NCBI GenBank assembly: GCA_043809745.1
Contig: JBDROU010000005.1
Location: 18,222 to 82,221, forward strand
Direction of reading: 5' to 3'
DNA length: 64,000 nucleotides
Source of the DNA: JBDROU01 sp043809745 [NCBI: bacterium]
Lineage (GTDB): Bacteria > Elusimicrobiota > JBDRMW01
Part shown: positions 2,856-51,956 of the stretch, piece by piece
Layout of the letters: each line of letters starts with the position of its first letter
Numbering within the stretch: the stretch's first letter is position 1
Notes under the pieces: model-generated
The model's database searches: none
What the model saw: only the letters and a program-made list of their open reading frames with translations
What the model was told of the DNA's origin: nothing
Program-made: the position numbers and the translations under genes

Positions 2856-3521
2856 TCAAACTACCTTTTTATCATTTATTATTAATTCAAAATTGCAGTG
2901 AAGAAACTGCGCAGCCCTCCTGCACATTATCATTCTGTCCAAAAATATCTCAAAATATTCCATTACCTGTGAAATCTGAGTATTAATGTTTAACTCAAGA
3001 CTGATCGACTTGTGCACCTGCTCTACTTTTAAGAACGATCTTTCCGCGGCATAATTTACCCGATCGTGTATATCAAATTCAACCATTCTGGGATTTCGAA
3101 CGCGTGACTGATGAACATCTGATTTATCCGCCAGGATCATCGCAGCCGCAACCGGATTAATTGGTTCACCCGTTTGTTCCTCATGATTACCGATAGCGCT
3201 GATAACGTATGCGATCTCCATCGGATCACACTTAAGTTCCTCCATCACCCTTATAGCAATCATCGCGCTGGCCCTGCCGTGATCATTCCTGTTTATCACA
3301 TTCCCAATATCATGCATATAACCGGCTATTGCCGCTAATTTAGGCAGCGGCTCGCGGTACATAAGGTGTTCCAGTATGTTTTGCGCCACATTTGACACCA
3401 AACTGGCATGCCTGAATCCGTGCTCAGTATAACCTATGGCGCCCAAATATTCATTTGCTGCCTCTATTAAACCTGAAACCAACTGATTACGTTTAACATC
3501 TTCAACAGTTATTGTAGACAT
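2856..3521 (-). CDS. HD-domain metal-dependent phosphohydrolase (paralogue A)
   Basis: This soluble 221-aa protein has the HD metal-binding set: H34 and H38 (EHGFRHA), H70-D71 (YMHDIGN), H81, H113 and D132 (ADKSDVHQSRVR). Such domains usually hydrolyse nucleotides or phosphomonoesters; the substrate is not evident. It is a clear paralogue of the protein at 6670-7347, with the same order of motifs over the full length, including RVNYAAERSFL and the C-terminal FEIFLDRM region. It lies between yajC and secD. The neighbourhood suggests a housekeeping role, possibly linked to envelope or RNA metabolism, but nothing in the sequence proves it. Confidence 0.88.
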   Translation of the reverse strand: MSTITVEDVKRNQLVSGLIEAANEYLGAIGYTEHGFRHASLVSNVAQNILEHLMYREPLPKLAAIAGYMHDIGNVINRNDHGRASAMIAIRVMEELKCDPMEIAYVISAIGNHEEQTGEPINPVAAAMILADKSDVHQSRVRNPRMVEFDIHDRVNYAAERSFLKVEQVHKSISLELNINTQISQVMEYFEIFLDRMIMCRRAAQFLHCNFELIINDKKVV

Positions 3522-5539: not shown

Positions 5540-6673
5540 TTACTTTATACCCTCGTTCCATGCAGATAAAAACTTTTGTTTTTGAGCAAAAAAACAATCA
5601 TTTTTAATGCTTTTATTTATTAATTTCATTAATTCTACCATAAAACATAAATTATGTAAAGTAGCTAACCGAGGAGCCAGTAATTCTTTAGCTTTGAATA
5701 GATGGTGAATATAAGCTCTTGTATAATTTTTACAGGTAAAACATCCGCATCCTGCTTCTACAGGTTTAAAATCATCTCTAAAACGCGCATTATCCAGATT
5801 ATACTTGCCATTAAATGTAAATATTTGGCCCTTCCTTGCATTTCTTGTAGGAAGAACGCAATCGAACAGATCAATACCATTCTCAATAAAAAACCACAAA
5901 TCCTCCATCATGCCTATACCCATAGCATATCTAGCTTTTTCCTCCGGCAGATATAAAACAGTATTTAACGCAGACTCATACATCAACTCCTTTGACTCGC
6001 CTACAGAAAGCCCGCCTATCGCATAACCGTCAAAATCCACCTCTACAGTCTTTAATGCGCTTTCTCTCCTTAAATCCTTAAAAACACCTCCTTGGACAAT
6101 CCCAAATAACTGACTTTTATTTGGTCCTTTATCAGAATGCTCGTTAAAATAATATTTACTCCGTTTGGCCCAGGAGTGCGTTCTATCAACCGCTTTTTTC
6201 ATATATGATTTTTCTACAGGATATCCGGGACATTCATCCAGAACCATCGCTATATCAGAACCTAATTTCAACTGTATATCCAAAGCCTTCTCAGGGGTAA
6301 ATTGATGATAGGAACCGTCTATATGCGACTGAAATCTTACTTCCTCATCCGTGACGCGTGCTAAGTCAGAGAGACTGAATATCTGGTATCCGCCCGAATC
6401 AGTTAATATCGGCCCGTGCCAGTTCATAAAATTATGCAGTCCGTGCGCTTTATTTATTATATCCAGACCCGGTCTTAAGTATACATGATAAGTATTTGCC
6501 AGAATCATATTCATTTGAAGCGAATGTAACTCATGCGAAGAAAGGGTTTTTACAGCTGCATTAGTTCCCACCGGCATGAAAGCAGGTGTCGTAACACTTC
6601 CATGAGCAGTTCTGACTGTTCCTATGCGCGCTTTACATTCAACGGATTTTTTTTCAACTTTAAAACATTTCAT
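5540..6673 (-). CDS. tgt: Queuine/preQ1 tRNA-ribosyltransferase
   Basis: Tgt exchanges guanine 34 of GUN-anticodon tRNAs for preQ1, the first tRNA step of queuosine synthesis. The 377-aa protein has the base-binding DSGGYQIFSL segment near residue 92, DECPGYP, GIVQGG, IGGLSVGE, the nucleophile region DLFDCVLPTRNARKG and the zinc site CGCFTCKNYTRAYIHHL near residues 308-325. Length is normal. The start codon overlaps the stop of the HD gene upstream (ATGA type), and queA precedes that gene, so the queuosine genes are cotranscribed. Confidence 0.97.
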   Translation of the reverse strand: MKCFKVEKKSVECKARIGTVRTAHGSVTTPAFMPVGTNAAVKTLSSHELHSLQMNMILANTYHVYLRPGLDIINKAHGLHNFMNWHGPILTDSGGYQIFSLSDLARVTDEEVRFQSHIDGSYHQFTPEKALDIQLKLGSDIAMVLDECPGYPVEKSYMKKAVDRTHSWAKRSKYYFNEHSDKGPNKSQLFGIVQGGVFKDLRRESALKTVEVDFDGYAIGGLSVGESKELMYESALNTVLYLPEEKARYAMGIGMMEDLWFFIENGIDLFDCVLPTRNARKGQIFTFNGKYNLDNARFRDDFKPVEAGCGCFTCKNYTRAYIHHLFKAKELLAPRLATLHNLCFMVELMKLINKSIKNDCFFAQKQKFLSAWNEGIK

Positions 6674-7347
6674 AAAAATTTATCCTGATTAATGAAAAGA
6701 ACAAAATTACACTTTAAGAATCTTGCTGCCTTTTTCGCCATATGAAGCCTGGATAAAAATATCTCGAAATAATTCATTACACTGCATATATCAATATCAA
6801 TGTTTAACTCCAATGATATCTCTGACTTCTCTTTATCTACCCTCAAGAAAGATCTTTCACATGCATAATTAACCCGGTCGTGCATATCAAAATCACGAAG
6901 ATTTTTCTTTCTAACCCTTGTCCTGTGAACATCAGTTTTATCTCCTAAAATAGCGGCAGCTGTTATCGGTGAATGGGGATCGTAATCCCGTTCTTCATGA
7001 CATCCTATCGCATTTATCACTCTGAATATCTCGTTCTGAATCATACCCAAACGCCTCAGCACATCCATAGTAAATACGGCTCCGCTTTGCATATGCCCTT
7101 GAGCGCCGAATGCGTTACCGATATCATGCATATAAGCAGAGATCCTGGCCAGCTCACAGTCCCTTTCAGGAAATCCTAAATATTTGAGCACATTCCCCGC
7201 AATGTTCGCAGCCAGCTGAGCATGCCTAAACCCATGCTCTTTATAACCGATTGCCGCAAAATTATCATCGGCAGCTTTTAACAGAGCCTGGACCTCAGCA
7301 TCATTCTTAACATCATCTAATGCAATCAAATCGTTTTTCTTTATCAT
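6670..7347 (-). CDS. HD-domain metal-dependent phosphohydrolase (paralogue B)
   Basis: This 225-aa protein is the sister of the one at 2856-3521. Metal-site residues are H38 and H42 (EHGFRHA), H74-D75 (YMHDIGN) and H85, followed by GCHEERD and GDKTDVHRTRVR. It is soluble and lacks a GYP motif, so it is not a c-di-GMP phosphodiesterase; the substrate is unknown. It directly abuts queA (adjacent stop and start) and overlaps tgt by four bases, so its translation is coupled to both. Keeping two copies in one operon suggests divided or paired function. Confidence 0.88.
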   Translation of the reverse strand: MIKKNDLIALDDVKNDAEVQALLKAADDNFAAIGYKEHGFRHAQLAANIAGNVLKYLGFPERDCELARISAYMHDIGNAFGAQGHMQSGAVFTMDVLRRLGMIQNEIFRVINAIGCHEERDYDPHSPITAAAILGDKTDVHRTRVRKKNLRDFDMHDRVNYACERSFLRVDKEKSEISLELNIDIDICSVMNYFEIFLSRLHMAKKAARFLKCNFVLFINQDKFL

Positions 7348-14030: not shown

Positions 14031-14087
14031 GGAAAATAGGGACTGTCCCTTCTGTCGTATCTCCAAGTAGACTGTCCCTATTTTTCC
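14031..14087. repeat. REP-like inverted repeat (GGGACTGTCCC type)
   Basis: Two arms of the form GGAAAATAGGGACTGTC (14031-14047) and GACTGTCCCTATTTTTCC (14070-14087) face each other across a short spacer, and GGGACTGTCCC is itself palindromic. The right arm supplies the final codons and TAG stop of the O-antigen-ligase gene at 14078. Short GC-rich repeats of this kind are commonly scattered near RAYT transposases; one such transposase lies 8 kb away, though with a different repeat. It could also act as a terminator for the gene it ends. Confidence 0.65.
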
Positions 14088-16549
14088 AATGCATTATTTA
14101 TTTCGCTTAGCGACTTTAACGCATCCTGATAAGCCCCGGCTTCATTAGGATTATCTTTGGTAACCGAAATAATTTTTTTACATATATTTTTAGCATTCTC
14201 AAAATCATTGAGCTTCATATATGCTGCGCTTAAATTCCTCATATTTGCCACACTATTAGGGTATTTTTCTAAAACTCTGGAATACATGGACACAGCATCG
14301 GCATATTTGCCCATACTGAAATATACATTGCCCAAAAACATCAATGCTGTGCCGTGGTTCGGAGAAATCTCTAATATCTCTTTAAGCATTGATTCAGCTT
14401 CATCATATTGTGCCGCTTGAACCAGCAACTTTATATTTTCTAATTTATTATCTATCTCTAAGAAAGGATGCGATGTTTTTCCTGATCTTTTTAATGAGAT
14501 TTCCAAATTCTGTCTGCCAGGCGCAAAATCCGGATCTATTCTGAGTGTTTGGGCATAAACATCTACCGCTTTATCATACTCTTCTGTTGTAATATAAACC
14601 CAGCCTAAATTATTCCAGAAATCCCTTTCATCCGGATGAACTCTTACAGCACTTAAATATAAATCTTCTAGTAACTTAAAATTTTTCTCCTTGTCTTTAT
14701 TGCTCTGTATATAGTTAATATAGATGTTGCTCATTCCAGTGCAGATATTTTCATTAAGAGGATTTATTCTATAAGAAATGTTGTAAAATTCTAACGCCTT
14801 ATCATATTTTTGCTGCTGATTACATATAGTGGCAATATTATAATATATCTCATCATAACCGCCGTTTGCCCTTAAAGCTTCCTCATAAGACCATACGGCC
14901 TTATCATAATCCTTAAGCCGCGCATAAGCATTGCCCATTTCGTAATTGTTGTTTACTTCCAACCTTCTGTATGAATGCGCTTTTTTGAGATATTGAATAG
15001 CATTATTCAACATCCTTTTCCCGCGATAATCCTCGCTTATTTCAGGATTCACTTTTTGTGAAAGCTTAAAACCTTTGAAAAAAGCCATCTGATGCGCCTG
15101 ATAATTATATACCCTCCATATAAAAAACATCGAAATTATTATTATCAAAATACTCAATATCTTTGCCGTTCCCTTTTGCAAATTGATCTCCCTGACCAAA
15201 ACAAAACCATGCACCTCATCATTAGCAACACCAACAACATTACCCATGAACCACCAGTATAGAAAGCACGGTACCGCAAAATGGAGCGAAACATTCAACA
15301 AATTATCAAACCACATACCGATCATACCAGCCGCCAATGCAACTATTATAAACCTGGACTCATTCTGATTGGCTTTTAATTGCATAAAAGCTTTATAACT
15401 TAAAGTAAGAAAAGTTGCCAAAATTAATAAATACACACCAAAACCAATAATGCCAACCTGAGATAGTATTTCAAGCACCTCATTATGCGCATTATTTGCA
15501 TGAGTCCTCAACTTGGAGAAGATTTTATCGTAAAGCAGCGTGCCTTGATAATACGGATAATATAATTCCAGCAGCCCCCATCCAATCCCTATAAACGGAT
15601 AACTGCGCGACATTTCCCAGCTGCTTTTCCAAATTAAAAACCTCTGATGCAGCGGATTGTAAATACCTGAAGCAGCCTCTTTTACTTCAAAAAATCTTTC
15701 TTTAACAGTTGGTGCGTATCCTGCGATATTACTCCTCGGCCAGAATAATACCAATATAATCACTAATGCAATTAGTAAACCTATGAACTTCTTATTCTTG
15801 CTTACAATCGATTTATCTTTAACCATCAAAATAACAAAGAGAAAAACAATCCCAACTATCACACCAATCCATGAACTTCTTGTTAATGTACATAGCAGTG
15901 CGGCAAAGTATACTAATAAGGAAAAAAGCAATGCAAAACGGTAAACCATTTCCCTAGCAGAAAGGTAATAATACAACGTTATAGGAAGAAGCATTACTAT
16001 ATACGAAGATAAAAAATTCGGATTACCAAAAGTTGATACCGATCTTACTCCGAATGGATTAAGCACCTTTGGCCATATAAATTCCAAACCAAAATACTGC
16101 AATACCCCGTAAAAACAGGAAACAACTCCAACAACAATACTAATAATCAGAACCAAACTTCTTTGATTCTTCCTTACAAAATACACCGCTATATAATAAG
16201 CCAAGAATGAGTTTACAATAGTAAAAAAGTATCTATTACCGCCTTCGCTCAATGTTGAAAAACGAAAGTACTCAACCGGGTGCTTAATATATGAAACGAC
16301 AACTGAAACCAAAGCTACAGCTGCAAATGCAGCAATGGGTATGTCTAAAGGAGTTCGTATTAATCTCAATTTTTTTGAGATCAACGCATCTATAAGAAAA
16401 ACTATTACTATAATAAGTATTGACGCATGAAGCAGGCTTATCTGAGTGTAATAAGGATTCCTGGTTAGGTCAGTGAAGAATAGTAATGGGGTAACTATGA
16501 GTATAAAATAAACGACCCAATCAATAATACGGATACTCAACTTATTCAT
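14078..16549 (-). CDS. O-antigen ligase-like membrane protein with C-terminal TPR array
   Basis: The 823-aa protein has about 11-12 membrane helices in residues 10-480, a large loop with the Wzy/WaaL-type pattern (FLIWKSSWEMSRSYPFIGIGWG, HNEVLEILSQVGIIGF), then seven or so tetratricopeptide repeats from about 520 to 810 (YEMGNAYARLKDYDKAVWSYEE-like units). The Wzy_C/WaaL domain polymerises or ligates surface glycans in the outer leaflet of the inner membrane; the TPR tail should lie in the periplasm and bind a partner. It starts eight bases after the end of the similar gene upstream, so the two form a tandem pair. The substrate cannot be read. Confidence 0.88.
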   Translation of the reverse strand: MNKLSIRIIDWVVYFILIVTPLLFFTDLTRNPYYTQISLLHASILIIVIVFLIDALISKKLRLIRTPLDIPIAAFAAVALVSVVVSYIKHPVEYFRFSTLSEGGNRYFFTIVNSFLAYYIAVYFVRKNQRSLVLIISIVVGVVSCFYGVLQYFGLEFIWPKVLNPFGVRSVSTFGNPNFLSSYIVMLLPITLYYYLSAREMVYRFALLFSLLVYFAALLCTLTRSSWIGVIVGIVFLFVILMVKDKSIVSKNKKFIGLLIALVIILVLFWPRSNIAGYAPTVKERFFEVKEAASGIYNPLHQRFLIWKSSWEMSRSYPFIGIGWGLLELYYPYYQGTLLYDKIFSKLRTHANNAHNEVLEILSQVGIIGFGVYLLILATFLTLSYKAFMQLKANQNESRFIIVALAAGMIGMWFDNLLNVSLHFAVPCFLYWWFMGNVVGVANDEVHGFVLVREINLQKGTAKILSILIIIISMFFIWRVYNYQAHQMAFFKGFKLSQKVNPEISEDYRGKRMLNNAIQYLKKAHSYRRLEVNNNYEMGNAYARLKDYDKAVWSYEEALRANGGYDEIYYNIATICNQQQKYDKALEFYNISYRINPLNENICTGMSNIYINYIQSNKDKEKNFKLLEDLYLSAVRVHPDERDFWNNLGWVYITTEEYDKAVDVYAQTLRIDPDFAPGRQNLEISLKRSGKTSHPFLEIDNKLENIKLLVQAAQYDEAESMLKEILEISPNHGTALMFLGNVYFSMGKYADAVSMYSRVLEKYPNSVANMRNLSAAYMKLNDFENAKNICKKIISVTKDNPNEAGAYQDALKSLSEINNALEK

Positions 16550-16557
16550 ATATAAAC

Positions 16558-18837
16558 TTATTTTTTTTGAAGAATCCTTTTTACATCTTCATCATCGGGA
16601 TATAACGAAGCAATACGGTTCCACATTTTTGATGCCTCATCATTCCTCCCGGTTTCACGGTATATTACCGTTAGATTCTTCATAGCTTGCAAATTATCCG
16701 GCGAGTATTTAAGCGCATTTATGTATGCTTCTTCCGCTTCTTTCAGCTTAGCAACATATTTTTCATTATCTCCTTTTTCGTTTGCATCTTTACCTCTCAT
16801 ATATCTAAGATTCCCTAAATGAAAATACGATTCCGAATTTCCGGGATTATGTTCAAGCGAAGCCTCATATATTTTCTCCGCATCATCCTGCTGCCCAAAT
16901 TTCATATATATCATTGCCATTCTATAGAAATTTTGAGGAAATACAGGATCCAGTTTCCTGTACTTTTCGTAACTAACCAAAGAAAGTTTATAATTTTCCG
17001 TACCCATTTCCTCAAACTTACCCGCTTCCGCTTCCTTGCCCTCATCGCGCAGATCTTGAGCTTTTCTAAAATATTGTTCGGCAAGTTTTGTGTAGAGATT
17101 ACCAACCTGATGATGCATCTGAACATAATTAGGGGCAAGTTCTTTTACATCGTTATATTTTTTTAAAGCCCTATCCCAATCGCCCTCCTGCCAGCGATCA
17201 TTATACACATTACCCATAAAATAGTGCGCCATTATGTAATTAGGATTTAATCTGTTTACTTCTCTATAATGCATAAGGGCTTCATCCCATTTAGCCTGCT
17301 TTGAATAAAATATGCCCCTATTATGATGAATGTCGGCGCTAAAATATCCGTAGAAAATATGCACGAGGTATGCAGCAACAACAACTACCATTACCTGTAC
17401 GACTCTCTGAAACCATCTTGCGCTTAAAGGGAACAAAGCATTTTCAGGTGTTACAGGTTCAGGTTTAGGGGATTTCTCCGGCATAGGATTATTGACAGTC
17501 AATGAACCGATAAGCCCTATCAATAACCACAGGAATATTCCGGATGAAACAAACCGCAGGCTAACATCAACCAGATTGTGAAACAACATGGCCAGGAATG
17601 CGCTTAATATCCCCAACATATAATACGCCCTTGGCTCCTCTAAAACCTCAATTTTTTTACCGAACTTATTAACTTTTTGTGTTACCATGGAAGAAAAACT
17701 TTTTAGTGATTTTAATCCGGTAACGGTAAAGAGAATAACTATCCACATAAACAAACTAAAACCTACAATGCCGTCATCATAAAGTATCTCTAAGAATTCA
17801 TTTTCCGGATGATCTGTTTCCGTATTATGTTTCCCTTCTATATGAAATATCTCAGGCCTTCTGTATGCCGGGTAAGTAGTCTTAAATGTACCTAAACCGG
17901 TCCCTAAAACCGGATGTGTTTCAATCATCTCCCATGTAGACAGCCATGTAAACACCCTAAACCTCAGAGAATCCAGTCTCTGAAGACTTATTTTTGCTAC
18001 AAAAAATACAGATACAATTAATACCAACCCCGTGAAAACTATAAAAACCCTTCTTACAAGTTTTATCTTTCCTATTGGCAGATATATAATAGTCAAAGCA
18101 GAAAAAATAAAAATCCCTGCCGCAAATCCTAGAAAAGCTCCTTTAGATGAAGTATGATATAGGCTAAATACAGTCATAAGAAATAAAACGATATAAGGAA
18201 AAGGGTTTTTTTTCATCGTTTTAAGGATTAATGACATTATAATAGGGGCTACAATAACCAGAAAGTTACCAAAGAAATTTGGATTGCCGTGTGTAGAGAA
18301 TATTCTAGGTCCGAAAGCGCCTCTCCATATAAAAGGATCCAAACCCATCCCGGGAACTTTTGGAAAGTAATGATAATCAAGATATTGAATGATCGCATAA
18401 AAATTTGAAATAAAAGCAGCCACCAGTATCCAAATAATGAGACGCCTGATTTTTTCACCGCTGTCAAACTCTTTTATAACAATCAATGCAAACAATATAT
18501 AAAAATTTCTTCTTACGAATTCATCAAGTGTGGTGCCGGGAAAGCTGGAATGCGCAAACGATAAATAACCTAATGCCAGATAGATAATCAGCGGCACAGT
18601 AAAAATATTATTTTTTTTGAAAGGATTTTGATTTTCTTCGATTATTTTCAATAGCCAAATTGCCGCAGCAATTGCACCCAAAATCTGCATAAGCGTAATT
18701 TTTACTTGAGCAGAGTCATAAGTCCTTAAGTAGAAAGCTACTGTAACTGAAAGGTATATTAAAGGGATTAGATATTTGAGCAGTAAATCGTAAAAGGAAA
18801 TAGCGCTCAATCGTAAATCTTTATAGATTGTTTCCAT
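16558..18837 (-). CDS. O-antigen ligase-like membrane protein with C-terminal TPR array (second copy)
   Basis: I use the ATG at 18837 (759 aa), which follows an AAAAAGAG site; a longer frame would run deep into the upstream porin gene. Membrane helices fill residues 15-500, with the ligase loop (FTWLSTWEMIETHPVLGTGLG, TDHPENEFLEILYDDGIVGF) in the middle, and TPR units occupy about 520-750. Motif order matches the 14078-16549 protein, so these are paralogues or at least same-architecture neighbours. It overlaps the PorV-like gene by 17 bases, coupling a glycan ligase to an outer-membrane barrel. Confidence 0.88.
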   Translation of the reverse strand: METIYKDLRLSAISFYDLLLKYLIPLIYLSVTVAFYLRTYDSAQVKITLMQILGAIAAAIWLLKIIEENQNPFKKNNIFTVPLIIYLALGYLSFAHSSFPGTTLDEFVRRNFYILFALIVIKEFDSGEKIRRLIIWILVAAFISNFYAIIQYLDYHYFPKVPGMGLDPFIWRGAFGPRIFSTHGNPNFFGNFLVIVAPIIMSLILKTMKKNPFPYIVLFLMTVFSLYHTSSKGAFLGFAAGIFIFSALTIIYLPIGKIKLVRRVFIVFTGLVLIVSVFFVAKISLQRLDSLRFRVFTWLSTWEMIETHPVLGTGLGTFKTTYPAYRRPEIFHIEGKHNTETDHPENEFLEILYDDGIVGFSLFMWIVILFTVTGLKSLKSFSSMVTQKVNKFGKKIEVLEEPRAYYMLGILSAFLAMLFHNLVDVSLRFVSSGIFLWLLIGLIGSLTVNNPMPEKSPKPEPVTPENALFPLSARWFQRVVQVMVVVVAAYLVHIFYGYFSADIHHNRGIFYSKQAKWDEALMHYREVNRLNPNYIMAHYFMGNVYNDRWQEGDWDRALKKYNDVKELAPNYVQMHHQVGNLYTKLAEQYFRKAQDLRDEGKEAEAGKFEEMGTENYKLSLVSYEKYRKLDPVFPQNFYRMAMIYMKFGQQDDAEKIYEASLEHNPGNSESYFHLGNLRYMRGKDANEKGDNEKYVAKLKEAEEAYINALKYSPDNLQAMKNLTVIYRETGRNDEASKMWNRIASLYPDDEDVKRILQKK

Positions 18838-19789
18838 AAGTACTCTTTTTGAGAGATCTCCTATTCCCAAACCGATAACTTAACGAATATCTATGCGTTA
18901 AATCAAAATCATCAAACGGGACTAAGGCATAATCAATATCGAAGCTGTAAAGCCTAAACCCAATTCCTCCTGTTAATCCAAATGTGCCGCCCAAATCAGG
19001 ATCATTATCAATCAAGTATTTATATCCGCCTCTGACAAAAACAACTTTTTGTATCGGTAATTCAAAACCAATCCTTAAATCATTACCGGCATCACTACTG
19101 TTTAGTCCTTCGCAATACACGATAAAATCGCTGGATGTTTTTAAAGAAGCGCCAAGACGAATTATTAACGGCTGCGAAAAAGAATCATTAATATATTTAA
19201 CCTTGCCTCCAAAATTCTGAATACTTAATCCAAATATTATTCTATCTTCAACGTTCAATATAGTTAAGCCGCAATCCCCAGAAAAAACGCTTACAGATTC
19301 ATCATCGATTTGCTCTTTTATCAATTTTAATGTGAGTCCAGCACTCAGATTATCTAGCAATTTAACGGATATGCCGGCGAACAGATCATAATCTGTTGAC
19401 TTGAAATCACCGGTTTTTACATTATTCACATCATACCTGTCCATAGAACCAGAATCCAGATACCCGATCCCAAAACCCAAACCACCCCATTTTACAGGCT
19501 GCGCATATGTAATATGAGTCAGGCTAATGGATTCCACAAATACAAGTTTCTGAAAGGAAACCTCCATATTCTTAAGGAATGTTAAACCGGCGGGATTATA
19601 ATAAAGTGTCTGTGAATCATCCGCAAGGCTTACGCCGCCTTCTCCTAATGCCGCCATCCTGGCACCGCGGGCAATCTTTAAGTATGAAAGAGCCGACTCG
19701 CCGGAAGCGTCATCAGCTAAAACATGATTCACAGCTAGCCCTAATACAAAACTAACTATAATAATTAATCTAAAAAACATAATTCTCAT
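18821..19789 (-). CDS. PorV/PorQ-family outer-membrane beta-barrel protein
   Basis: The 322-aa protein has a signal peptide (MRIMFFRLIIIVSFVLGLAV, cleavage near ADDA), then the family motif ARGARMAALGEGGVSLADD and TLYYNPAGLTFL, and alternating beta-strand sequence to a C-terminal aromatic-ended strand (YSLSYRFG). PorV-like proteins are FadL-fold barrels in the outer membrane, some serving as shuttles or anchors in type IX secretion; no other type IX genes are visible here. It follows maf by one base and overlaps the glycan ligase gene, so it probably belongs to the surface-polysaccharide unit. Confidence 0.85.
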   Translation of the reverse strand: MRIMFFRLIIIVSFVLGLAVNHVLADDASGESALSYLKIARGARMAALGEGGVSLADDSQTLYYNPAGLTFLKNMEVSFQKLVFVESISLTHITYAQPVKWGGLGFGIGYLDSGSMDRYDVNNVKTGDFKSTDYDLFAGISVKLLDNLSAGLTLKLIKEQIDDESVSVFSGDCGLTILNVEDRIIFGLSIQNFGGKVKYINDSFSQPLIIRLGASLKTSSDFIVYCEGLNSSDAGNDLRIGFELPIQKVVFVRGGYKYLIDNDPDLGGTFGLTGGIGFRLYSFDIDYALVPFDDFDLTHRYSLSYRFGNRRSLKKSTYGNNL

Positions 19790-44450: not shown

Positions 44451-44804
44451 TTAAACCTTTAAGTTTTCAGTTATCAGCTTATGCAGCTCCAGTCTGTTTT
44501 GCAAATTAACATGTTTAAATCTCAAACCGTAAAAGTAAGAATTTCCAACATTGCACTTCCAAATAATCTGACTGTTAAATTCAAACTCCTTAATAGGATA
44601 GAAACTAATTTTGATCCTATAATCCATATCCGTACTCAGTTCTTGGCCAATTTTTAACCCTGCCCCAAAAATACTCACATTCACCAGTTCAGCCATAACG
44701 CTTTTTTGCTCCAGATCAACCCCGTGCTCCAGATGAGCTTCACCGATTAATCTGACTCTGGGAGCTGCTCTTTTGGTTTTAACATTTTGAATAACCATTA
44801 TCAA
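44451..44804 (-). CDS. PilZ-domain protein in the pyrimidine operon
   Basis: The 117-aa protein is a single PilZ domain. The c-di-GMP-binding motif RxxxR is present (R12-A-A-P-R16) and the second motif NVSIFGAG (an N in place of the more usual D) follows at about 48-55; [17 protein letters not shown] completes the barrel. It should therefore bind c-di-GMP, though its target is unknown. It overlaps pyrR by four bases and precedes pyrB by 29, so it is an embedded member of the operon. An HD-GYP enzyme and motAB are in the same window. Confidence 0.86.
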
Positions 44805-47352: not shown

Positions 47353-48243
47353 TTATAATTCTAACTGGGCACCTGTGAGGCGTTTATATATGTTTAAGTA
47401 TTTGTCTCTTGTTTTGTCTACAATTTCACCGGGGAGTTCCGGGACCGGCGGTTTTTTGGCCCAATTAATTGATTCCAGATAATCTCTTACAAATTGTTTA
47501 TCGAAACTTGGCTGCGCTTTGCCGGGTTGATAATCCTTTTTATCCCAGAATCTGGATGAATCCGGCGTCAATACTTCATCTATCAAAATTAATTTTTCGT
47601 TAAGTAATCCGAACTCAAATTTTGTATCCGCTATGATTACATTATTTTTCTCTGCAATCGCAACCGCTTCCTTGTACAGTTTAATGCTGACATCTCTTAA
47701 AGTTTTCGATAACTGCACACCGACAACATTCTGCATCTGCTTAAAATTTATATTTTCATCATGCTTTCCGCTTTCTTCTTTTGTGGACGGTGTAAAAATT
47801 ATTTCCGGTAGTTTGTCCGATTCGTTCAACCCTGGAGGCAGTTTTATGCCGCAAACCGTTCCTGCCTTTTTATACTCTTTCAATCCGGACCCTGCAAGAT
47901 ACCCCCTGACTACGCACTCAATAGGAATTTTATTTGTTTTTTTTACTATCATAAATCTGCCGTTTAGCTTTTCTTTATAAGAACTTAAAGTTGAAGGCAG
48001 ATCATTTATCTCATCAGAAATAAAATGATTCTCCACAACAAAGGAAAGTTTATCAAACCAGAATTTTGAGATCTGGGTCAGCACCTTCCCCTTATCAGGG
48101 ATCGGTGTGGGCAAGACATAATCAAATGCTGAAATCCTGTCCGTTGCGATAATTAGAAGTTTATCTTCCAAACTGTAAATATCCCGAACCTTCCCTTTAC
48201 TAAACAAAGTTAAATCTAAGTTTGTGTCTATTATTGCTTTCAT
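47353..48243 (-). CDS. purC: SAICAR synthase
   Basis: PurC joins CAIR and aspartate using ATP. The 296-aa protein is of the longer form, with LFSKGKVRDIYSLEDKLLII at the start, ATDRISAFDYVLP, KKTNKIPIECVVRGYLAGSG, the TPSTKEESGKHDENI segment and LIDEVLTPDSSRFWDKKDY. It follows the SecY-like gene by 22 bases at the tail of the ATP-synthase transcript and is split from purD by a 235-base gap with a promoter. Confidence 0.97.
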   Translation of the reverse strand: MKAIIDTNLDLTLFSKGKVRDIYSLEDKLLIIATDRISAFDYVLPTPIPDKGKVLTQISKFWFDKLSFVVENHFISDEINDLPSTLSSYKEKLNGRFMIVKKTNKIPIECVVRGYLAGSGLKEYKKAGTVCGIKLPPGLNESDKLPEIIFTPSTKEESGKHDENINFKQMQNVVGVQLSKTLRDVSIKLYKEAVAIAEKNNVIIADTKFEFGLLNEKLILIDEVLTPDSSRFWDKKDYQPGKAQPSFDKQFVRDYLESINWAKKPPVPELPGEIVDKTRDKYLNIYKRLTGAQLEL

Positions 48244-48265: not shown

Positions 48266-49606
48266 TTATTTTATATAATCCTGTAAAATATTCTTAGATT
48301 TTTCAATATCAGCACCCTTTACCAAGAGGATCTTTTCTGCGAGCGGCCCCATCTGAAACCCCCAAACCCTGCCGAATGCTTCCTTCCCATAAACTTTTGA
48401 TTCTATCCCATTACTTGACAAAAGAGCCTGCATCTCAAAAAAATAAGTATCATCAGAATGTTTTGCTATTTCCACAAAGTTTTTATCTTTAGTAAGAGAA
48501 ATAAACAGCAGTGTTAGATATCCAACAAACAGCAGCCCCTGAACGCCTATTGATATTCCTATAGCAAATCCAACGTGCGTGATTTTATGCAAAATAATAT
48601 AACTGAGTAATAAAGCAAAAATAAACAATCCCCATAACAAGCTTGCTTTGTTTAGAGGTTTTTCCAATGCATTCTTGTCTATTTGCTCGGGAAGTTTAAG
48701 TTTTTCATTAAATCTTCCTGCTAATTCTTCGCTATGCATAATTAAAGGACAGTAATATCTGTAAATGACCAGCATTACTACCATGGCCTGAAAGTACATA
48801 AATATATAAAAATTACTGGATATAAACTGGCTTATTATGTATATGCAGAAGAAAGATACGATAAAATACGGCAGCAAACCTATAATAAATATTGGCACCT
48901 TGAATGATATTTTACCGGGCAACGAAACGGTTTCCTTCCTTATTATTATATATATAACCGCCACAGATATACCAACAACCGCAAAGCTAACCGCGAATAG
49001 CAAGAAGTAACCAAGAATTACAGGAATATTTTTATTCCAATAAAGAATATGCTTAATAAACTCAGTGTATTTTATATAAATCGTTTGTATTATTTCTAAA
49101 GATATTATTAAGGAAAAGCCATGCCCGATACCGTAATTGTTTATCAAACTGCCTAAAATTATATATATAAATACTCCTCCCAAAAGAGTAACAATAATTG
49201 TTACTCTTGACAAAACATTTATACTTTCTAAGGAATCAGAAGCTATAAAGTAATTCGTTAGAACAACTGAATGAATTAGAGCTAATATTATTGTTATTAA
49301 TACAACAACAAAATTTCCTTTGTTAAACCAATTTGTTTTCCAAAAATTGTTTTGTACTGAAGGAATAACCCAAATAAGCAGTGCTATTATATGGGCATTG
49401 ATAAAAGGCCACAAACCCAAAACAACTATCGAGTAATGAGTATTCCCTGCTGTTTGACCGATTAAGGGCACAGGAATAAAAGATACAATTTTATAAACTA
49501 TAATTACTGCAGCTGTTATTAACAACTTACGCTTAAACCCTGGTTCAACCAGCAGGTTTTTTAATCTGCTAAGAAATTTTAGTAAATCAGATTTTATATC
49601 TATCAT
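48266..49606 (-). CDS. Divergent SecY-like membrane protein with fused C-terminal DUF2007-like domain
   Basis: The 446-aa protein follows the SecY helix pattern. Helix 1 (about 28-48, VYKIVSFIPVPLIG), helix 2 (VLGLWPFINAHIIALLI, 62-78), the helix 4-5 turn (YGIGHGFSLIISLEI, 158-172), helix 7 (VPIFIIGLLPYFIV), HSEELAGRFNEKL (291-303) in the helix 8-9 loop and helix 10 (GFAIGISIGVQGLLFVG) all align with SecY. Between helices 1 and 2 only about ten residues remain, so the plug is missing, and the helix 6-7 cytoplasmic loop (224-236), which in SecY touches ribosome and SecA, is short. Residues about 376-446 resemble a DUF2007 domain. It starts six bases after atpD, where atpC usually is. It cannot be a normal translocon; function unknown. 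Confidence 0.82.
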   Translation of the reverse strand: MIDIKSDLLKFLSRLKNLLVEPGFKRKLLITAAVIIVYKIVSFIPVPLIGQTAGNTHYSIVVLGLWPFINAHIIALLIWVIPSVQNNFWKTNWFNKGNFVVVLITIILALIHSVVLTNYFIASDSLESINVLSRVTIIVTLLGGVFIYIILGSLINNYGIGHGFSLIISLEIIQTIYIKYTEFIKHILYWNKNIPVILGYFLLFAVSFAVVGISVAVIYIIIRKETVSLPGKISFKVPIFIIGLLPYFIVSFFCIYIISQFISSNFYIFMYFQAMVVMLVIYRYYCPLIMHSEELAGRFNEKLKLPEQIDKNALEKPLNKASLLWGLFIFALLLSYIILHKITHVGFAIGISIGVQGLLFVGYLTLLFISLTKDKNFVEIAKHSDDTYFFEMQALLSSNGIESKVYGKEAFGRVWGFQMGPLAEKILLVKGADIEKSKNILQDYIK

Positions 49607-49612
49607 TTTTCG

Positions 49613-51956
<2,344 letters not shown>

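What the first reader, a model, noticed from the sequence alone, without database searches (positions are those of the whole stretch)
48266..49606. Plug-less SecY paralogue fused to a DUF2007-like domain in the ATP synthase operon
The protein follows SecY from helix 1 to helix 10 (SFIPVP, LGLWPFINA, GIGHGFSL, HSEELAGRF) yet lacks the plug segment between helices 1 and 2 and has a shortened helix 6-7 loop that normally contacts ribosome and SecA. About 70 extra residues at the C-terminus resemble DUF2007, a small putative signalling domain. This suggests a pore-like or scaffold protein derived from the translocon and put to a new use, perhaps with FoF1.
Basis: partly seen in the sequence, partly recalled or inferred. 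Interest (0 to 1): 0.85.

Follow-up and report, generated by a model that had tools for sequence, protein, structure and literature searches.

The report
Repurposed SecY with added regulatory domain
A protein built on the cell's standard protein-export channel has lost the channel's plug and the sites where ribosomes and the export motor dock, and has gained a small sensor-like domain; a second bacterium has the same design, which suggests that the export channel was rebuilt for another, still unknown, job.

Summary
The ORF at 48266-49606 (minus strand, 446 aa) is a very divergent SecY-family protein (Pfam SecY E 5.5e-15) that fails the curated SecY model (50.6 bits, cut-off 253.6). Against 91 canonical SecYs, the segment holding the plug is 11 residues (canonical 30-34), the C4 loop 10 (canonical 22), and the C5 GIRPG-type motif is absent.

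A relative at 22% identity in an Elusimicrobiota-phylum genome (P0006, G287) has the same build: SecY (E 6.2e-35) plus DUF2007 above Pfam's cut-off, no plug, short C4, the same Asn-to-His change in GxGNG. G287 also has a canonical secY. DUF2007 in the window protein is weak alone (10.7 bits; 0 of 2000 shuffles as high).

The FoF1 link is not conserved: the relative overlaps purN and purB; the window gene lies between atpD and purC, where 13 of 15 fetched relatives' loci have atpC. Among 340 genomes of that phylum only G287 showed the fusion.

Best reading: a SecY-fold membrane protein freed from ribosome and SecA and controlled by a PII-like cytosolic domain. Cargo and function are untested.

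The parts
48266..49606 (-). secYp: 446-aa fused protein (P0001), SecY-fold membrane part plus DUF2007-like tail
   Evidence: ORF; PF00344 E 5.5e-15; relative P0006
48494..49555 (-). SecY-like membrane part (about residues 18-371)
   Evidence: hhalign probability 99.8 of the pair against canonical SecY; alignment
49433..49465 (-). TM1-TM2b spacer of 11 residues where the plug (TM2a) should be
   Evidence: 11 against 30-34 in 91 canonical SecYs
49121..49123 (-). His162 codon in GIGHG; Asn in 91 of 91 canonical SecYs, His also in P0006
48899..48943 (-). shortened TM6-TM7 (C4) loop, about residues 222-236
   Evidence: 10 residues against 22 in 91 of 91 canonical SecYs
48269..48493 (-). DUF2007-like C-terminal domain (residues 372-446)
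   Evidence: same position as the Pfam DUF2007 hit in P0006; profile test; low-confidence model
49613..51040 (-). atpD, upstream neighbour (6 bp gap)
   Evidence: NCBIfam TIGR01039 E 4.9e-249
47353..48243 (-). purC, downstream neighbour (22 bp gap)
   Evidence: NCBIfam NF010568 E 1.6e-128

Best explanation
A SecY paralogue taken out of general protein export. It keeps the ten-helix SecY body (shown by sequence profile), has lost the plug and the features of the two cytosolic loops by which SecY meets the ribosome and SecA (shown as sequence loss; their roles are established knowledge), and carries on its C-terminus a small DUF2007 domain of probable PII-like fold (DUF2007 is shown in the relative and weak in the window protein; the PII-like fold is weakly supported). 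Inferred mechanism: binding of a small ligand or a partner by that domain changes the state of the plug-less pore or lateral gate, so that the protein works as a regulated channel or SecA/ribosome-independent insertase, or as a membrane-bound sensor. In G287 an ordinary SecY exists beside it; for the window's organism this is assumed. The purine-gene setting in both genomes makes a nucleotide-related signal the first candidate; this last step is a guess.
For: SecY homology over nearly the whole ten-helix region. Plug, C4 and C5 features missing in both fused proteins; plug spacer and C4 length regular in 91 canonical SecYs, C5 motif in 82 of 91. Same shared change N to H in GxGNG (N in 91 of 91 canonical). 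DUF2007 over Pfam's cut-off in P0006, weaker profile support in P0001. The DUF2007 profile's solved-structure matches include RPA1041 (2hfv, E 0.015) and a P-II protein (5ovo, E 0.14). G287 has a separate canonical secY. P0006 overlaps purN and purB by 4 bases on each side (positions); the window gene ends 22 bp before purC. Neither protein reaches the SecY equivalog cut-off.
Against: Only two members are known, and a tree does not unite them: end branches 8.7 and 5.9, the free tree puts them apart, and one clade is merely not rejected (p-AU 0.276). P0006 is only the 13th best BLASTP subject of P0001's membrane part and 4th by phmmer, behind canonical SecYs. Of 110 strongly conserved columns only 3 show a shared non-canonical residue. 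The two C-terminal domains do not match each other directly, and the DUF2007 match of P0001 has E 0.36 in the window scan. The PII-like statement rests on weak E-values, in a list that also holds a de novo designed protein (E 0.096) and a Fanzor fusion (E 0.52). The low-confidence model of the tail aligns best with regions of tRNA synthetases (Z 5.9, in the range the tool calls common), not with P-II. Neighbours differ between the two genomes. Nothing bears directly on cargo or ligand.
Confidence: 0.4

Rival explanations
1. A membrane anchor or scaffold: the SecY body only holds the DUF2007 domain (and in G287 the cysteine-rich N-terminus) at the membrane, near nucleotide-synthesis enzymes or another partner, and nothing passes through it.
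For: Conserved channel features are thinned: P0001 keeps 36 and P0006 40 of 110 columns that are at least 95% conserved in canonical SecY; P0006 has added parts at both ends (DUF2007; CX4C and CX2C cysteines read from the sequence); purine genes adjoin in both genomes.
Against: A ten-helix channel fold is a costly anchor (judgement). By eye on the alignments, the TM2b and TM5 motifs (LGLWPFINA, GIGHG) are kept while the loops are lost; this was not measured separately.
Confidence: 0.25
2. A dedicated insertase or assembly factor for FoF1 membrane subunits.
For: 6 bp after atpD in the window, in the place of atpC. A paper argues that chemiosmotic complexes can be made without SecY by YidC-type insertion (PMC8675477, passages seen).
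Against: In G287 the gene overlaps purN and purB, on another contig than the partial atpD. In the 15 atpD stretches fetched from relatives no listed frame matched either fused protein at E 1e-4; 4 of these 15 (L240, L246, L248, L252) were uninformative or had little downstream sequence.
Confidence: 0.12
3. An accessory translocon of the SecY2 kind, exporting or inserting a few special clients.
For: P0006 has weak matches to the accessory SecY2 models (E 2.4e-10 and 5.2e-8, far under cut-off).
Against: P0001 has no SecY2 match; the C4 and C5 docking features are missing. No SecA gene was recognised by eye beside either gene (ORF lists), but none was searched for by profile.
Confidence: 0.1
4. 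A decaying duplicate with no selected function.
For: Very long branches and loss of conserved columns.
Against: Both reading frames are intact (446 and 488 aa) and tightly packed between neighbours; the added domain and the parallel deletions occur in two distant genomes.
Confidence: 0.1

Closest known systems
SecY (Pfam PF00344, NCBIfam TIGR00967)
   Same: Profile match over nearly the whole ten-helix body, TM1-TM2b and GxGxG motifs
   Different: No plug, short C4, no GIRPG-type C5 motif, N to H in GxGNG, far below the equivalog cut-off, extra C-terminal domain
Accessory SecY2 (TIGR02920, PRK12417)
   Same: A second, divergent SecY beside the housekeeping one (shown for G287); weak matches in P0006
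   Different: Below cut-off; none for P0001; loops lost; DUF2007 added
DUF2007 (PF09413), putative signal-transducing domain
   Same: C-terminal domain of P0006 over cut-off, of P0001 by profile
   Different: Here fused to a ten-helix membrane protein; of 28 over-cut-off places in 340 genomes, 20 lie in frames of at most 151 aa and 1 in a SecY frame
Plug-less proto-SecY proposed in PMC8675477 (passages)
   Same: Both proteins lack the plug and have a short C4, the corresponding h1-h2 loops of the two halves in that paper's table
   Different: The paper's object is a hypothetical ancestor; these are modern proteins

Membership tests
SecY protein-conducting channel | SecY profile over both halves | tested here: met
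   PF00344 E 5.5e-15, profile 1-293/306; hhalign of the pair 99.8
SecY protein-conducting channel | Curated equivalog score (TIGR00967) | tested here: not met
   50.6 (P0001) and 108.8 (P0006) bits against 253.6
SecY protein-conducting channel | Plug segment between TM1 and TM2b | tested here: not met
   11 and 16 residues against 30-34 in 91 canonical
SecY protein-conducting channel | C4 and C5 loops for ribosome and SecA | tested here: not met
   C4 10 and 13 against 22; C5 G[IVL]R[PSA]G motif absent in both, present in 82 of 91 canonical
SecY protein-conducting channel | Works with SecE, SecG, SecA or ribosome | not testable with these tools
   needs biochemistry
DUF2007 (PF09413) | Pfam gathering score | tested here: inconclusive
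   met by P0006 (28.4 against 25.7 bits); no Pfam hit for P0001; own profile 10.7 bits, 0 of 2000 shuffles as high, E 0.36 in the window scan
PII-like fold | ferredoxin-like structure matching P-II proteins | tested here: inconclusive
   profile hits 2hfv E 0.015 and 5ovo E 0.14; model of the tail pLDDT 60 with no significant fold match
Accessory SecY2 | NCBIfam TIGR02920 / PRK12417 cut-off | tested here: not met
   32.1 and 39.6 bits against 249.6 and 353 for P0006; no match for P0001

The most novel reading that the evidence does not exclude
A translocon turned into a ligand-controlled membrane channel or insertase: a plug-less SecY body without ribosome or SecA docking whose gate is set by a fused PII-like domain, possibly reading adenine-nucleotide state and serving nucleotide metabolism, and at the same time a living example of the plug-less SecY architecture that has been inferred for the ancestor.
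Probability: 0.2. Interest if true: 0.85.

Novelty: new variant of a known kind. Interest (0 to 1): 0.6.

Why it matters
SecY is one of the few universally conserved membrane channels. A natural version that has lost its seal and its docking loops, and that gained a signalling-type domain, would show that the fold can leave protein export, and would give a natural test object for what the plug and the loops do. It also bears on the proposal that early SecY had no plug.

Tried and rejected
Own-genome search for a canonical secY: no genome is held for the window, so coexistence is shown only for G287. A2 in viral contigs: none; P0001 in plasmids: no match.

Genome searches without a fusion: 17 genomes of the loci with P0001, 8 match, all in frames of SecY length; 17 handles with PF00344, some of them the same genomes, 16 match, no full-length second copy; the phylum of G357 (a record titled Zixiibacteriota) with A2, 121 of 132 match, no listed match goes past profile position 417 of 502, so none reaches the DUF2007 part; three small phyla, 3 of 3, 5 of 5 and 6 of 6 match without fusion, apart from one weak odd match in a 2429-aa frame. 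These searches score only candidates of a loose first look.

PF00344 in the 340 genomes: 14 had more than one match. Looked at again, 5 of the 14 (G287, G335, G097, G266, G293) hold extra copies that I take as real, 6 in all; the other 9 show partial pieces, judged from coordinates. Only the copy of G287 coincides with a DUF2007 place.

P0001 alone and its tail alone were folded: pLDDT 46 and 60, not used as evidence of fold. Foldseek gave nothing at E <= 0.001, and no P-II protein or RPA1041 is among the 50 rows shown by either search; the highest VIA-align rows are mostly tRNA synthetase regions. The tree was rejected as evidence of placement because of long branches. Earlier counts are superseded: 94 'canonical' rows, 3 of which were paralogues, dropped later; 38 and 50 of 128 columns kept; patterns that covered only 62 and 69 of the 94 rows; one search used the 94. 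Canonical SecYs from viral contigs to give the folder an alignment: only fragments. PHROGs: no match for either protein. A weak DUF2304 match of P0001 (E 0.017, below cut-off) was not pursued.

Papers: search listings only; no listed paper is described there as treating a SecY-DUF2007 fusion. Of PMC8675477 only passages were read.

Full report
What is there. The window ORF 48266-49606 (minus strand) is intact, 446 aa. Pfam gives SecY with E 5.5e-15 over residues 59-355. NCBIfam's SecY equivalog model gives 50.6 bits, far below its cut-off of 253.6. phmmer against PDB sequences finds 10 distinct sequences at E <= 1, all named SecY, the best with E 0.00066. The pair P0001+P0006 compared with eight canonical SecYs gives hhalign probability 99.8 and E 4.1e-28; P0001 alone gives 96.9.

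Where it is. No genome is held for the window. Window proteins point to Elusimicrobia records: HD-domain protein 60-66% to the eight best rows; SecD 60-61% to L002, L004, L005, L016 and SecF up to 60%. For some genes (queA, ruvC, yebC) the best fetched loci are Firmicutes records, but the loci at hand were few and chosen by the HD gene. atpD is 67-80% identical in 15 of 24 genomes searched through these handles. I treat the organism as Elusimicrobiota or a close neighbour. Neighbours by NCBIfam: atpA, atpG, atpD upstream, purC and purD downstream, purN and purB further along the same pur/pyr cluster (pyr names are my reading of the ORFs and come from no family search). The gap is 6 bp to atpD and 22 bp to purC. 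On the genes' strand the consensus scan shows no terminator-like site at either junction; its one site here lies inside the gene, and the whole region has fewer sites (4) than its shuffles (mean 8.0).

A relative. Among 294 genomes of the phylum of G002 searched with P0001 (35 matched at E <= 1e-6), one match had an unusual frame and span (G287, residues 21-254, frame 617 aa). Its protein, P0006 (488 aa, L154 7245-8708), has SecY E 6.2e-35 and DUF2007 E 1.9e-6 with 28.4 bits against a cut-off of 25.7. Near its start are four cysteines (CX4C, CX2C), which I read as a zinc ribbon; no model was matched. By the positions it overlaps the gene before it and the gene after it by four bases each; Pfam names these a formyltransferase (purN-like) and an adenylosuccinate lyase (purB). 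BLASTP between P0001 and P0006: 52.0 bits, 52 of 248 identical; alignment identity 22%. G287 also holds a canonical secY (contig C40, frame 445 aa).

Anatomy against canonical SecY. 91 canonical SecYs from the fetched loci were aligned with the two fused proteins and five other paralogues. TM1-TM2b spacer: canonical 30-34, P0001 11, P0006 16. C4: canonical 22 in all 91, P0001 10, P0006 13. C5 span: canonical minimum and median 28 (maximum 128), P0001 23, P0006 19; G[IVL]R[PSA]G motif in 82 of 91, in neither fused protein. GxGNG: N in 91 of 91, H in both. Of 110 columns conserved at 95% or more in canonical, P0001 keeps 36 and P0006 40; in three of them both share a non-canonical residue. The roles of plug, C4 and C5 are established knowledge; PMC8675477 (passages) lists plug and C4 as the h1-h2 elements of the two halves, says that plug-deletion mutants are tolerated, and finds a plug-less proto-SecY plausible.

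The tail. DUF2007 is not found in P0001 by Pfam. A profile was grown from DUF2007 frames of 27 loci and rebuilt without the G287 rows (earlier rounds had included them). P0001's tail scores 10.7 bits, more than any of 2000 shuffles (best 8.3); P0006's tail scores 30.4; in the six-frame scan of the window P0001 is first but with E 0.36. BLASTP between the two tails found nothing. A profile of seven such domains, the two fused ones included, matches four PDB sequences at E <= 1: 2hfv (RPA1041, 0.015), a designed protein (0.096), a P-II protein 5ovo (0.14) and a Fanzor fusion (0.52). I recall that DUF2007 is classed near GlnB-like proteins; no call shows it. The model of the tail alone has pLDDT 60, with strand 6-11, helix 15-27, strand 31-36, helices 37-43 and 63-74; fold searches gave nothing significant.

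How common. PF00344 in 340 genomes of the phylum: 317 with a match, 14 with more than one. On a second look 5 genomes hold 6 extra SecYs. The A2 profile over the same 340 gave one full-length match, G287, which is in the profile by construction; 164 genomes passed E <= 1e-24, the other rows shown stop before the DUF2007 part, and rows were cut off. PF09413 in the same 340: 36 genomes at E <= 0.01, 27 over cut-off, 28 places over cut-off, one of them in a SecY frame. To judge from P0001's own scores, a fused protein as divergent would be missed by PF09413 but not by PF00344.

The atp slot. atpD was sought in 24 genomes: 15 matched at E <= 1e-60, and these 15 stretches were fetched. In 13 of the 15 an epsilon-subunit-like (atpC) frame follows atpD in the ORF table (one cut by the contig end, one partly masked); for G278 (L246) my ORF picker showed neither atpD nor atpC, and G287's contig ends inside atpD (atpC is named from its sequence, not by a family search). 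A profile of seven of these atpC proteins finds none in the window (best E 1.2). So in the window the fused gene stands where atpC stands in relatives; atpC may lie elsewhere in that genome.

Kinship of the two fused proteins. A tree of 30 rows gives them end branches of 8.7 and 5.9 changes per column and places them apart, with warnings about long branches; one clade is not rejected (p-AU 0.276). Among 94 SecYs and P0006, P0006 is P0001's 13th best subject by BLASTP and 4th by phmmer. Common descent therefore rests on shared architecture, parallel deletions and the shared His, and convergence from SecY is not excluded.

Reading. As far as sequence can tell, neither protein is fed by ribosome or SecA in the usual way. 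I commit to a SecY-fold membrane protein under control of a PII-like domain, as a channel, insertase or sensor, at 0.4. The FoF1 idea is weak; the nucleotide idea is suggested by two genomic contexts only.

What is new. Paper searches (listings only) brought up no such fusion. DUF2007 is named in four papers of that library.

Noticed in passing
L150 (G335) and L153 (G097): SecY paralogues that lack the plug (spacer 5 against 30-34) but keep C4 length and the GIRPG-type C5 motif, with lysine/arginine-rich C-termini: a second, different plug-less architecture.
   Followed up: partly
L149 (G335, contig C21), L151 (G293), L152 (G266): Further extra SecY copies: one with normal loop lengths but no C5 motif (42 of 110 conserved columns), two that keep C4, C5 and most conserved columns (67 and 70 of 110), one of these with a plug spacer of 24.
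   Followed up: partly
window 49606-49613: atpC is missing after atpD and was not found in the window, while an atpC-like frame follows atpD in 13 of 15 stretches fetched from relatives.
   Followed up: yes
G359 contig C128, 587-976 (L163): A weak match to the fused profile (E 1.2e-8) inside an open frame of 2429 aa; nature unknown.
   Followed up: no
window 14078-16549 and 16558-18870; L154 5109-6641: Two large window proteins that look by eye like O-antigen ligase plus TPR; a Wzy_C O-antigen ligase protein sits between purM-like and purN genes in G287.
   Followed up: no
window 44451-44804: A PilZ-domain protein (E 3.4e-8) lies between genes that I read as pyrR and pyrB.
   Followed up: no
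window 2856-3521 and 6670-7347: Two HD-domain paralogues, 49% identical, a few kb apart.
   Followed up: partly
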